Part shown: positions 38,498 through 40,881 of the stretch, piece after piece
Layout of the letters: every line of letters begins with the position of its first letter
Numbering within the stretch: the first letter of the stretch is position 1
From: Prosthecobacter debontii
GTDB taxonomy: Bacteria; Verrucomicrobiota; Verrucomicrobiia; Verrucomicrobiales; Verrucomicrobiaceae
Length of the DNA: 64,000 nt
Direction of reading: 5' to 3'
Assembly: GCF_900167535.1 (NCBI RefSeq)
Contig: NZ_FUYE01000002.1
Span: 434,001 to 498,000, forward strand
Notes under the pieces: model-generated
The model's database searches: none
What the model was told of the DNA's origin: nothing
What the model saw: only the letters and a program-made list of their open reading frames with translations
Made by a program: the position numbers and the translations under genes

Positions 38498-38538
38498 GAC
38501 CGGTCCTTGATATTGTATCAGGACCGGTCAGTTGTTTT
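38498..38538. terminator. Bidirectional terminator between ECF sigma and TIM-barrel genes
   Basis: GACCGGTCC (38498-38506) pairs with GGACCGGTC (38521-38529). The stem is extended by TGATA/TATCA after a one-base bulge. The T-rich stretch GTTGTTTTT follows on the plus strand. The 3' arm overlaps the last bases of the minus-strand gene, so the two convergent genes share it. Confidence 0.85.
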
Positions 38539-39364
38539 TACTCACTCCCACCAGATAATCGAAAGCACGCCGAGCTCTAGCCAAGGTATCCGTGATCGAC
38601 TCATAAGGATTACCCGTGAGTTCCAGAATCATCGATCCTTTGAACTGATGCCCTTTGAGCTCACCTAGCAACCAAGGCCAATCGATGATCCCTTCACCGG
38701 GATTGAGATGGGAGTCATAGTCCCCACGGTTATCGTTGGCATGGATCATTTTTAAATGACCGGAGAGCTTGTGCACCACAGTTCCGAGTTCTCTCGCCAA
38801 GCAAGCATGCCCGGTATCCAAACACGTGCCGACATTGCACTCCTGGATCTGACCCAACAAATAAAGCATGTCGCTGATATGGCCGAACAACAAGTGCGGC
38901 AGCATATTCTCTAGCAGAAGATTGACTCCGAGCTGGTGACACTTCTGCGCCACGACATTGAGAGACTCCGCAGCAACCTCCATGTGCAATAAGAACTCCT
39001 CCTGAGGAGGCCTGCCTTCTCTTTCGGGGCCAGGATGCAAAACGACGTTCTTGGCACCCATGGCCGCCGCAGCCTCACATGCGATGCAGAGTTCTTTGAC
39101 CGCATCTTGGCGGGTGTGATCATTGAGGGAGGTGATATCGATCCTGTCGGCAAATGGGGCATGAAATGAAAACGGATGCAGTTCCAACTCACGCATCCGC
39201 TCACCTGCTCGAGCAACCAAGTCATGCTGATGATAATCCAAATGACGCGGATACGAGCAAATTTCAATCTGTCGGAAACCGCTTTCTGCGATACCTTCCA
39301 AAACATCAAAAATGCTTCGGTAATAAAAACAGCCTGTGGACAGGCCGATGGGCCATTGATTCAT
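38528..39364 (-). CDS. Endonuclease IV-like / xylose isomerase-like TIM-barrel protein
   Basis: A 278-residue AP-endonuclease-2 superfamily barrel (Pfam PF01261). This family includes both sugar-phosphate isomerases and the AP endonuclease Nfo. All nine residues that hold the three zinc ions of E. coli endonuclease IV have counterparts: H68 (SFHAPF), H110 (VVLHPG), E152 (LLLEN), D183 and H186 (LDTGHA), H208 (MIHAND), D217 and H219 (YDSHL) and E248 (LELTG). Length is close to Nfo (285). Its ATG overlaps the stop of the primase-like gene (ATGA). Some annotated isomerases/epimerases also keep most of these ligands, so the substrate stays open; the primase neighbour favours DNA. Confidence 0.75.
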   Translation of the reverse strand: MNQWPIGLSTGCFYYRSIFDVLEGIAESGFRQIEICSYPRHLDYHQHDLVARAGERMRELELHPFSFHAPFADRIDITSLNDHTRQDAVKELCIACEAAAAMGAKNVVLHPGPEREGRPPQEEFLLHMEVAAESLNVVAQKCHQLGVNLLLENMLPHLLFGHISDMLYLLGQIQECNVGTCLDTGHACLARELGTVVHKLSGHLKMIHANDNRGDYDSHLNPGEGIIDWPWLLGELKGHQFKGSMILELTGNPYESITDTLARARRAFDYLVGVSKNN

Positions 39365-40761
39365 AACATGGGGTGGGTGAGTAGAGTTTGCCTTAACGGA
39401 GCTAAGCAGGCGCCCGCATCCGCAGGAGAGTGGCAGAAGCCTTTCTCCCGGGTGGAGATGCAGTTGAAATCGATGAGTTCATCCAGCCCCATGGCTCGGA
39501 GTCCCGCGAAGATCCGGGTGTAGAAGTCCGCTCGAATGGCGGCGTTATAATCCATCCAGTCCACTCCCCAGCCGTAAGCTGGGTTTTCGAATTTCGACCG
39601 GATGAAACCGGCGATGTGCCTCGGATGCCAGCCTCGCGCCAGTAAGCTCCGCGTGATGAGTTGCATACCTGCGGGCTTAAGCAGTCGATCATTGGGATCC
39701 TCGACCAAGGCTCTCATGCAGGGTGGTAAGAGCCCAGGTGGGGTATGGTCATAAGTTTCAGGCCAGCGATCACGTGGATCGTGTTGGTCGGAGTAAAAAA
39801 ACTCATGAAACCGCCTGAGGGGTGAGGTCAAATACTCATCCACGAGTTTAGCGGTGCCATGTGATTGGTCAGGGATGCGAACGCAGGCGCGTCTTGCGAG
39901 GTCGCGGACATCAGCCTCATTTTGACGCACCTGAAGCGCCAAATGGACATCCATCTCGTGCAAGGGCACCACCCGCACTAGGGGGATCTGACTCTTCACT
40001 TCAGGATCGTCGGCCAACCCCTGCATCCACGGCTTCAAATAATACGTGAAGGGCTGACGAATCATCCGCGCATACAGAGGATCTCCATATTCAGAAATAT
40101 CCACGGAGACAATTTCTCGTGTTCCTGTTTTGCCAGGCCCCACATGCACTGCCGTGATCTCGACTGGAATGTCCATGAGGGGTGATGCCTCTTGTTTGAT
40201 CCGCTGAGCCACATATTCCATCACGAGGGACTGGGCTGCGAATGCAGCCTGAGCACCTTCACTGATCTGGTCCGCGAAAGCACTCGGCACCGCATTGACA
40301 CATTCCGCGCGCAATTCTGGAGCTGGGTCTAAACCCTCCAGCCGACCAGCCAAGTCTCCTGGCCGCTCGACTCGCCAAACAAAATGATGTCCTTGCCCGG
40401 TTAAGATATGAAGAGGCCGGATACCCCAGCCTAGGAGCAGACACTCAATGGTTTTCACCACCGGTTCTTGGATTTCAAAAGCACGAGCGGCATCCACATG
40501 TGCAGACGCATGGAAATCGAAATTTACATACTCAATGTCGAGGTGGAAAATGAGCGATCGGGAGTCTGCCAAGGAACGCGCGATATCAAGATCCCGTTCC
40601 AAAAACCAATCGAGCTCACGGGGTGGACGAAGCTGGGAACGCTGATACTGATGCCGATCCGAATGCGTCAGATACGCCGCTGAGACCTGATCCAGCGTCT
40701 CGCCGCCGAGAAACTCAATCAAGCGTTGCCGAATTGCGTCGTCTCGATAAAAAGGAGTCAT
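39361..40761 (-). CDS. Putative archaeo-eukaryotic primase-like protein with PriL-like C-terminus
   Basis: A 466-residue protein not matching ordinary bacterial families I know. The first half has features of the AEP primase/polymerase fold: an acidic pair in IFHLDIEYVNFDF (D75, E77), a Gly-His motif LTGQGHHFVWRV (121-126), and a third Asp in VSVDISEYGDP (D221) followed by RMIRQPFTYYLKP. The C-terminal part begins PPCMRALV (C348) and ends with C434, C443 and C452 (FNCIST, GFCHSP, GACLAP), separated by a helical stretch with HPRHIAGF and DYNAAIR. This resembles the four-cysteine [4Fe-4S] domain of the large primase subunit PriL. It is translationally coupled to an endonuclease IV-like gene. 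Assignment is from motif reading only; moderate certainty. Confidence 0.6.
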   Translation of the reverse strand: MTPFYRDDAIRQRLIEFLGGETLDQVSAAYLTHSDRHQYQRSQLRPPRELDWFLERDLDIARSLADSRSLIFHLDIEYVNFDFHASAHVDAARAFEIQEPVVKTIECLLLGWGIRPLHILTGQGHHFVWRVERPGDLAGRLEGLDPAPELRAECVNAVPSAFADQISEGAQAAFAAQSLVMEYVAQRIKQEASPLMDIPVEITAVHVGPGKTGTREIVSVDISEYGDPLYARMIRQPFTYYLKPWMQGLADDPEVKSQIPLVRVVPLHEMDVHLALQVRQNEADVRDLARRACVRIPDQSHGTAKLVDEYLTSPLRRFHEFFYSDQHDPRDRWPETYDHTPPGLLPPCMRALVEDPNDRLLKPAGMQLITRSLLARGWHPRHIAGFIRSKFENPAYGWGVDWMDYNAAIRADFYTRIFAGLRAMGLDELIDFNCISTREKGFCHSPADAGACLAPLRQTLLTHPML

Positions 40762-40881
40762 CCTTCGAGTATCGTTTTTAGCGAACGCAGCGCGTGTTCA
40801 CGTTTCAAGTGAGACGGAAATGGGGGCTCGAAAAGTTTTAGTTTGTGCATTTGACGGAGGCCGCTTGCCCTGACACGGACC

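What the first reader, a model, noticed from the sequence alone, without database searches (positions are those of the whole stretch)
38528..40761. Translationally coupled primase-like and endonuclease IV-like genes: possible DNA repair or priming module
Seen: the primase-like gene (39361-40761) overlaps the TIM-barrel gene (38528-39364) by ATGA. The first protein has an Asp-Ile-Glu acidic pair (75-77), a TGQGHH motif (121-126) and a later Asp (221), matching the three AEP primase motifs, and four cysteines (348, 434, 443, 452) placed like the [4Fe-4S] domain of PriL. The second keeps all endonuclease IV zinc ligands. Known: AEP enzymes join end repair (LigD, PrimPol), and EndoIV cuts abasic sites. 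Inference: the pair could make and process primers or gaps at damaged DNA. I know of no described bacterial system with this pairing.
Basis: partly seen in the sequence, partly recalled or inferred. Interest (0 to 1): 0.85.

Follow-up and report, generated by a model that had tools for sequence, protein, structure and literature searches.

The report
Iron-sulfur primase-polymerase paired with EndoIV-like nuclease
Two overlapping genes in a Verrucomicrobia-type bacterium encode an unannotated DNA primase-like polymerase with a eukaryote-style, probably iron-sulfur tail and a partner resembling a DNA-repair enzyme; relatives in two bacterial phyla almost always keep them side by side, which points to a dedicated but untested DNA-repair tool.

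Summary
The full-length 466-aa protein has no family hit, but its AlphaFold2 model (pLDDT 93) has the archaeo-eukaryotic primase (AEP) fold; mycobacterial Prim-PolC (Z 16.4) and LigD polymerase domains (15.7) tie for nearest, ahead of PriS (11.7). The AEP motifs are near-invariant. The last 170 residues match, weakly, only PriL 4Fe-4S domains (Z 5.0-5.6); four cysteines are kept together, or in one clade lost together. The partner carries all nine EndoIV metal ligands but is no canonical EndoIV. In 239 genomes of the order, 49 have the polymerase and 47 the barrel, all 47 inside the 49. The pair recurs in Verrucomicrobiota and Planctomycetota, once as a single ORF; no other neighbour is constant. 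Mycobacterial Prim-PolC works with EndoIV in base excision repair, so I favour a gap-repair module: the barrel cleans damaged ends, the polymerase fills. Activities, interaction and the cluster are inferred. Some neighbourhoods carry stress genes, a post hoc finding. New variant of a known kind: AEP fold and pairing are secure, the repair role about even odds.

The parts
39364..40761 (-). AEP-type primase-polymerase with C-terminal PriL-like domain, 466 aa (stop codon at 39361-39363)
   Evidence: no hit at E<=1 in Pfam, NCBIfam, PHROGs, PADLOC; model pLDDT 93.3, pTM 0.94; best fold matches Prim-PolC Z 16.4 and LigD-Pol 15.7
39874..40761 (-). catalytic AEP region, residues 1-296
   Evidence: rows span mainly residues 1-312
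40531..40539 (-). AEP motif I, D75-I76-E77
40384..40401 (-). AEP motif II, TGQGHH (121-126)
40099..40101 (-). AEP motif III, D221 (81 of 81)
39364..39873 (-). C-terminal helical domain, residues 297-466, PriL 4Fe-4S-domain-like
   Evidence: sub-threshold PF04104 matches
39718..39720 (-). C348, putative Fe-S ligand 1
39460..39462 (-). C434, putative Fe-S ligand 2
39433..39435 (-). C443, putative Fe-S ligand 3
39406..39408 (-). C452, putative Fe-S ligand 4 (position drifts by a few residues among relatives)
39361..39364 (-). ATGA stop/start overlap of the two genes (translational coupling inferred)
   Evidence: -4 in 22 of 38 and 46 of 77 measured junctions
38531..39364 (-). EndoIV-like TIM-barrel protein, 278 aa (stop codon at 38528-38530)
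   Evidence: AP_endonuc_2, 2e-39; nine metal ligands

Best explanation
The two genes are a chromosomal two-component DNA-repair module. The first protein is a primase-polymerase of the AEP superfamily whose palm is closest to the repair enzymes Prim-PolC and LigD-Pol, joined to a PriL-type C-terminal helical domain that probably holds a [4Fe-4S] cluster. The second is a metal-dependent phosphoesterase of the EndoIV barrel class. Proposed mechanism: the barrel incises abasic sites or removes 3'-blocking groups, leaving a 3'-OH; the polymerase, its partner, fills the short gap (possibly with ribonucleotides) or re-primes opposite damage, using the C-terminal domain to hold the 5' side or the initiating nucleotide; a ligase encoded elsewhere seals. 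Shown here by sequence and models: the AEP fold, catalytic motifs, metal-ligand set, four-cysteine unit, near-obligate gene pairing, one single-ORF form. Inferred: both activities, direct interaction, the cluster itself, the substrate, and use under stress or dormancy.
For: AEP fold: rows Prim-PolC (Z 16.4, 3.6 A, 250 aligned, 12% id), LigD-Pol (15.7; a tie), CAPP (13.3), yeast PriS (11.7), Pfu PriS (11.6). Motifs conserved. CTD alone modelled at pLDDT 92.3: of the 32 chains compared only 3 reached Z 2, all PriL 4Fe-4S domains, Z 5.0-5.6. PF04104 in 60 genomes (45 of the 49 carriers plus 15 non-carriers): 12 sub-threshold matches at E<=1, 5 of them on the C-terminal part of this gene. Cys: 69 of 81 rows keep all four, 7 have none at these sites; the 6 of those 7 placed on a tree form one clade, 100/100. 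Pairing: 40 of 41 and 77 of 80 loci (overlapping sets, 79 loci distinct at 85% identity); barrel in 47 of 49 carriers and 0 of 190 others; one 758-aa ORF in L083. Nine EndoIV ligands. Precedent: Prim-PolC and LigC associate with BER enzymes, EndoIV co-purifies LigC, and EndoIV was the most useful end-processor in a reconstituted repair (PMC5663958, abstract and passages). A few neighbourhoods encode a PolX-type HHH_8/fingers protein (4 of 79; Pfam-confirmed in the two tested).
Against: No activity, interaction or cluster was measured. Foldseek had no match at E<=0.001 for either model. CTD Z values are low, and the tool warns that Z under about 13 for helical bundles may mean only a common arrangement; PF04104 never reached its cut-off, and a chance-level family (Terminase_5) touched more members (5 of 61, best 0.015) than PF04104 (3 of 61, best 0.0013). 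No ligase is linked to the pair, and 17 of 49 carriers had no ATP-dependent-ligase match at 1e-10 (LigA not tested). The barrel is far below EndoIV cut-offs (51.3 of 244, 34.3 of 129.65 bits) and also resembles CbiR and epimerases, so its substrate need not be DNA. The PolX-type neighbour is not significant alone (4/79 vs 1/79, p 0.14). The module is patchy (49 of 239; 9 of 387 genomes sampled across the phylum), and one second copy has no barrel (L130).
Confidence: 0.55

Rival explanations
1. A damage-tolerance re-priming module. The PriL-like domain lets the AEP initiate primers de novo downstream of lesions, like PrimPol or PriSL, and the barrel later trims the primer or the lesion-bearing end.
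For: PriX, structurally related to the PriL Fe-S domain, confers primer initiation (PMC5700102, abstract and passages); PriL-CTD-like fold here; PriS-PriL fusion PolpTN2 has primase and polymerase activity (PMC3973330, abstract and passages).
Against: The catalytic fold is nearer to Prim-PolC and LigD-Pol than to PriS or human PrimPol. By my recalled human PriL sequence, the initiation arginine R306 (named in PMC5700102) is not obviously conserved; this was not computed. Seven relatives lack all four Cys but keep the rest, though PMC5700102 reports that the cluster is not required for priming in Sulfolobus.
Confidence: 0.25
2. An anti-mobile-element or anti-phage system of two genes.
For: Patchy presence (49 of 239), varied genomic location, and AEPs occur in a CRISPR-linked context (CAPP, a fold match).
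Against: No PADLOC match for either protein; 12 PADLOC families were matched, each by 1 to 4 of 148 scanned neighbour ORFs; no relative found in viral contigs, phages or plasmids; recurring neighbours are mostly of stress or regulatory type.
Confidence: 0.08
3. A metabolite or nucleotide-signal pair: the AEP makes a small nucleotide product and the barrel, a phosphodiesterase or isomerase, degrades it or works in sugar metabolism.
For: The barrel also matches CbiR, fructoselysine 3-epimerase and other isomerases and is not a canonical EndoIV.
Against: All nine EndoIV ligands are kept. Among solved chains MJ1311 and two of the five EndoIV-named sequences rank above the best epimerase, the other three are intermixed with them, so this is only mild evidence.
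Confidence: 0.07
4. An accessory non-homologous end-joining polymerase with its end processor.
For: Ku in 13 of 49 carriers versus 12 of 190 non-carriers (p 2e-4) and LigD-Pol in 14 of 49 versus 15 of 190 (p 3e-4); LigD-Pol ties for best fold.
Against: 36 of 49 carriers have no Ku match; the window's genome has a separate Ku/ligase/LigD-Pol cluster at C17; the association is uncorrected for genome size, completeness and relatedness.
Confidence: 0.05

Closest known systems
Mycobacterial Prim-PolC / LigC excision-repair complex with EndoIV (PMC5663958)
   Same: AEP polymerase among the two closest folds (Z 16.4); functional partnership with an EndoIV-type end processor
   Different: A ligase (LigC) is in the complex; as far as I recall, EndoIV is not in the same operon and Prim-PolC has no PriL-type Fe-S domain
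LigD polymerase domain (with its 3'-phosphoesterase and ligase, as recalled)
   Same: Repair AEP fold (Z 15.7) working beside a 3'-end-cleaning activity
   Different: No TIGR02778 hit for our protein; no ligase; end processor is an EndoIV-like barrel; most carriers lack Ku
PolpTN2 of Thermococcus plasmid pTN2 (PMC3973330) and PrimPol-PV1 AEPs (PMC5862659)
   Same: AEP fused to a PriL-like domain with four Fe-S cysteines (PolpTN2)
   Different: Plasmid or mobile-element families, PolpTN2 of 923 residues; here a compact 466-aa chromosomal protein, no viral, phage or plasmid relative found, with an EndoIV-like partner. Sequences of the PrimPol-PV1 families were not compared
PriS-PriL primase of archaea and eukaryotes
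   Same: Catalytic AEP plus PriL 4Fe-4S-type domain
   Different: One polypeptide, too short for a PriL N-terminal domain, palm nearer to Prim-PolC and LigD-Pol
Endonuclease IV (Nfo), MJ1311, CbiR
   Same: AP_endonuc_2 barrel; nine-ligand metal site shared with Nfo
   Different: Below family cut-offs; a subfamily tied to the AEP

Membership tests
Archaeo-eukaryotic primase (AEP) superfamily | AEP palm fold | tested here: met
   AEP enzymes lead from Z 16.4 downward; Foldseek gives the same leaders but with weak E-values, best 0.018
Archaeo-eukaryotic primase (AEP) superfamily | three motifs hhDxD/E, SxGxH-like, hD (definition recalled) | tested here: met
Archaeo-eukaryotic primase (AEP) superfamily | primase or polymerase activity | not testable with these tools
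   needs enzymology
LigD-Pol / Prim-PolC family | sequence match to the ligD_pol model (TIGR02778) | tested here: not met
   no NCBIfam hit at E<=1; in the window's genome TIGR02778 finds another gene, on C17
PriL 4Fe-4S C-terminal domain (PF04104) | Pfam gathering score | tested here: not met
   best member E 0.0013, 3 of 61; 3 of 31 full proteins, best 0.01; no match over the cut-off in 60 genomes
PriL 4Fe-4S C-terminal domain (PF04104) | fold | tested here: inconclusive
   only PriL-CTDs reach Z 2 (3 of 32 chains) but Z is 5.0-5.6
PriL 4Fe-4S C-terminal domain (PF04104) | four conserved cysteines | tested here: met
   69 of 81 rows all four, 7 none; 2 differ at one aligned site, 3 end early or are frameshifted
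PriL 4Fe-4S C-terminal domain (PF04104) | bound [4Fe-4S] cluster | not testable with these tools
   needs UV-vis/EPR
Endonuclease IV (Nfo) | curated family score (TIGR00587, NF002198) | tested here: not met
   34.3 of 129.65 and 51.3 of 244 bits
Endonuclease IV (Nfo) | nine metal ligands (roles recalled) | tested here: met
   9 of 9 against three Nfo-type proteins that pass the TIGR00587 cut-off
Endonuclease IV (Nfo) | AP-endonuclease activity | not testable with these tools
   needs enzymology
PrimPol-PV1 / PolpTN2 AEPs of mobile elements | carriage by viruses, plasmids or integrated elements | tested here: inconclusive
   no relatives found in viral contigs, phages, plasmids; loci were not examined for integration ends
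Known anti-phage defence systems | PADLOC model match | tested here: not met

The most novel reading that the evidence does not exclude
A redox-sensing bacterial primase-polymerase: the PriL-type Fe-S domain gates an AEP that fills gaps or re-primes at damage, and its near-obligate EndoIV-like partner forms one enzyme with it (a single ORF in L083), giving stressed or dormant Verrucomicrobiota and Planctomycetota a self-contained excision-repair route separate from DnaG/Pol I, Nfo and NHEJ.
Probability: 0.25. Interest if true: 0.88.

Novelty: new variant of a known kind. Interest (0 to 1): 0.72.

Why it matters
It would extend eukaryote-like primase architecture (AEP plus PriL Fe-S-type domain) to a compact chromosomal bacterial enzyme and tie it genetically to an EndoIV-like enzyme. 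The Prim-PolC-EndoIV partnership in mycobacteria rests on protein interaction and reconstitution; here the gene order itself welds the two together. The Cys-less clade offers a natural experiment on what the primase Fe-S cluster is for. The polymerase is unrecognised by Pfam, NCBIfam, PHROGs and PADLOC.

Tried and rejected
Chance pairing: rejected by co-occurrence and adjacency. Mobile element: no relatives found in viral contigs, phages or plasmids. Sequence link to solved AEPs or PriL: none (the hits look like chance). Foldseek of the CTD was weak: four rows at E<=10, one of them PriL (3q36, E 6.9). Viral structure library: weak, mixed hits, among them a viral PriL and a TOTE primase. The first genome-contig scan with the single protein found nothing; the alignment query found 94 relatives, of which 80 were kept. 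In the 61-member Pfam scan of the CTD, Terminase_5 touched 5 members, PF04104 3, and two helical primase domains (NrS-1 HBD, RepB_primase_C) one each.

NHEJ: Ku and LigD-Pol are enriched among carriers but absent from most. Defence: no support. Sigma-70 promoter-like sites no more than chance (2 found, 2.1 expected); the upstream alignment of five close relatives shares only a few bases near the start codon. SOS boxes were not searched for.

Stress neighbourhood: 25 of 79 non-redundant loci against 2 of 79 random 8-kb windows carried one of six markers, p 5e-8 with 69 effective foreground windows. The markers were chosen after seeing the loci, the random windows come from fewer genomes, and the names PEP synthase, P-type ATPase, kinase and Lon are mine by eye (Usp, HSP20 and HHH_8 have Pfam support), so the p-value is inflated. 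Families recurring in at least 4 windows: 13 versus 4; three of the 13 are shared synteny of the window and its three closest congeners. PpsA and HHH_8 alone are not significant. The earlier neighbour scans used a 105-locus set that still held duplicate genomes, and saw 148 of its 325 flanking ORFs. The Mantel r of 0.83 over 72 loci is expected from shared ancestry. Absence of canonical Nfo in carriers (0 of 49 vs 15 of 190, p 0.046) rests mostly on one genus.

Literature: ten searches of open-licence PMC papers listed no paper whose title or abstract start describes the pair; subscription papers and preprints are not covered. Papers were seen as listings, abstracts or passages only.
Full report
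What is there. The window lies in a 6.29-Mb, 56-contig genome. Its taxonomy is inferred: a genome of the same genus, G037, has a contig of the same length and match as the record titled Prosthecobacter sp. (L071). On the minus strand a 466-aa gene (stop at 39361) overlaps by ATGA a 278-aa gene (38528-39364). All motif and cysteine positions in the finding are correct.

The polymerase. At full length no family library recognises it at E<=1. An alignment of 62 proteins from the window and named public contigs gave a model with mean pLDDT 93.3 and pTM 0.94. Foldseek leaders are Prim-PolC and LigD polymerase domains, with modest E-values (best 0.018, none at 0.001 or below). Catalytic positions are essentially invariant: D75 80 of 81 with one gap, E77 78 Glu and 2 Asp, H125 81, D221 81. 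The fold assignment is secure; activity is inferred.

The C-terminal domain. Residues 297-466 were modelled alone (pLDDT 92.3). Foldseek had almost nothing (3q36, E 6.9), but among the 32 chains aligned only three reached Z 2 and all three are PriL 4Fe-4S domains: Xenopus Z 5.6, human 5.2 and 5.0, 110-116 residues aligned, about 4 A. Such Z values alone would be weak. Other hints agree. PF04104 (PriL) touches 3 of 61 C-terminal domains, best E 0.0013 (Terminase_5 touches 5, best 0.015), and 3 of 31 full proteins, best 0.01. In a six-frame scan of the window's own genome its only match at E<=1 lies here (E 0.7). In 60 genomes (45 of the 49 carriers, 15 non-carriers) it gave 12 matches at E<=1, none over the cut-off; five fall on this gene, covering residues from about 266-326 to 354-392. 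The four cysteines behave as a unit: 69 of 81 rows have all four, 7 have none at these sites, 2 differ at one aligned position, 3 end early or are frameshifted. Six of the seven Cys-less rows were placed on a tree and form one clade with 100/100 support, beside a Terrimicrobiaceae row that has them. Precedents for both states exist: PolpTN2 fuses PriS- and PriL-like parts with four Fe-S cysteines (PMC3973330, abstract and passages), and archaeal PriX is related to the PriL Fe-S domain and supports priming, for which the cluster is not required (PMC5700102, abstract and passages).

The barrel. Pfam AP_endonuc_2 at 2e-39. It is far below the EndoIV cut-offs and also matches CbiR and epimerase models. 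By profile the nearest solved proteins are MJ1311 (1e-26), an EndoIV entry, TTHB071, another EndoIV entry, then epimerases and further EndoIV entries mixed. Against three Nfo-type proteins of the same order all nine metal ligands align. A metal-dependent phosphoesterase is the natural reading; DNA as substrate is not proven.

The pair. Among 239 genomes of the order the polymerase occurs in 49 and close barrels (E<=1e-40) in 47, all inside the 49; in the other two, G203 and G054, the polymerase match stops at a contig end. Across the phylum an alignment search found it in 9 of 387 genomes. The barrel is directly downstream in 40 of 41 loci and in 77 of 80 loci from named contigs. The three exceptions there are a contig end (L101), a partial barrel (L129) and an orphan second copy (L130, the same copy as L063). 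The two sets overlap; at 85% identity 79 loci are distinct. Junctions are -4 in 22 of 38 and 46 of 77 cases. One MAG carries both as a single 758-aa ORF (L083); a small assembly error could also produce this. Named carriers include Lacipirellula limnantheis, Roseiconus nitratireducens and Candidatus Laterigemmans (Planctomycetota) besides Verrucomicrobiota; a few rows bear other phylum labels (MAGs, binning uncertain). No other gene is a constant neighbour.

Context. About a third of loci (25 of 79) have a universal-stress, HSP20, P-type ATPase, PEP-synthase, kinase or PolX-N-terminal-like gene within 4 kb, against 2 of 79 random windows; recurring families number 13 versus 4. The markers were picked after the fact and some names are mine by eye, so this is a lead only. 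The window itself has an ECF-type sigma factor, a glutathione-transferase-like protein, DUF892, CsbD, DUF2383 and DUF4142 genes nearby. In 4 of 79 loci (1 of 79 random windows) a protein with the HHH_8 and fingers-type domains of X-family polymerases sits near the pair; that does not prove dRP-lyase activity but would fit excision repair.

Mechanism. In mycobacteria Prim-PolC fills short gaps and EndoIV was the most useful end-processor in a reconstituted repair; EndoIV as bait also co-purified LigC (PMC5663958, abstract and passages). Prim-PolC is one of the two closest solved folds to our polymerase, and our polymerase's constant genetic partner has the EndoIV metal site. I therefore prefer gap repair (about 0.55) over re-priming (0.25), with defence, metabolism and NHEJ minor. 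The genome has its own Ku, ligase and LigD-Pol cluster on contig 17, so the pair is not simply its NHEJ enzyme.

Novelty. Ten searches of open-licence PMC papers showed no description of this pairing (listed under Tried and rejected). Kazlauskas et al. report AEP homologues from Verrucomicrobia among their bacterial families (PMC5862659, abstract and passages); I did not compare their sequences. I rate it a new variant of a known kind.

Noticed in passing
L160:6148-7512 (+) and L160:7843-9156 (-); L161:154-1443 (-): A distant sister family in the same phylum (E about 1e-30): two divergent copies near each other in one genome, with an AEP-like SGGH motif in two of the three proteins, no close barrel in these stretches and no C-terminal cysteines.
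   Followed up: partly
L164:5839-6546 (genome G159): The module is decayed: only polymerase residues 9-61 and barrel residues 88-271 remain, adjacent, with stops. L162 (genome G467) shows partial polymerase and barrel matches next to each other.
   Followed up: partly
L130:4962-6452 (+) = L063:2430-3920 (-): An orphan second copy of the polymerase without a close barrel in a genome (G181) that also has a complete pair; long branch in the tree.
   Followed up: partly
L068 and L051/L115: Polymerase match split into two frames while the barrel match is continuous.
   Followed up: no
L087:7288-8133 (+), L043:10091-11206 (+): HHH_8 plus HHH_5 and a weak fingers-domain match, like the N-terminal part of family X polymerases, beside the pair.
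   Followed up: partly
G000:C17:134370-137662: The window's genome carries a separate Ku, ATP-ligase and LigD-Pol cluster, so it encodes at least two AEPs.
   Followed up: partly
window about 38498-38540: A palindromic GACCGGTCCT...AGGACCGGTC stretch followed by T's lies between the convergent barrel and sigma-factor genes, a possible terminator not reported by the scan.
   Followed up: no
window about 40762-40810 (upstream of the polymerase): Five close relatives share a CACGC stretch and a few bases just before the start codon although the rest of the upstream region does not align.
   Followed up: no
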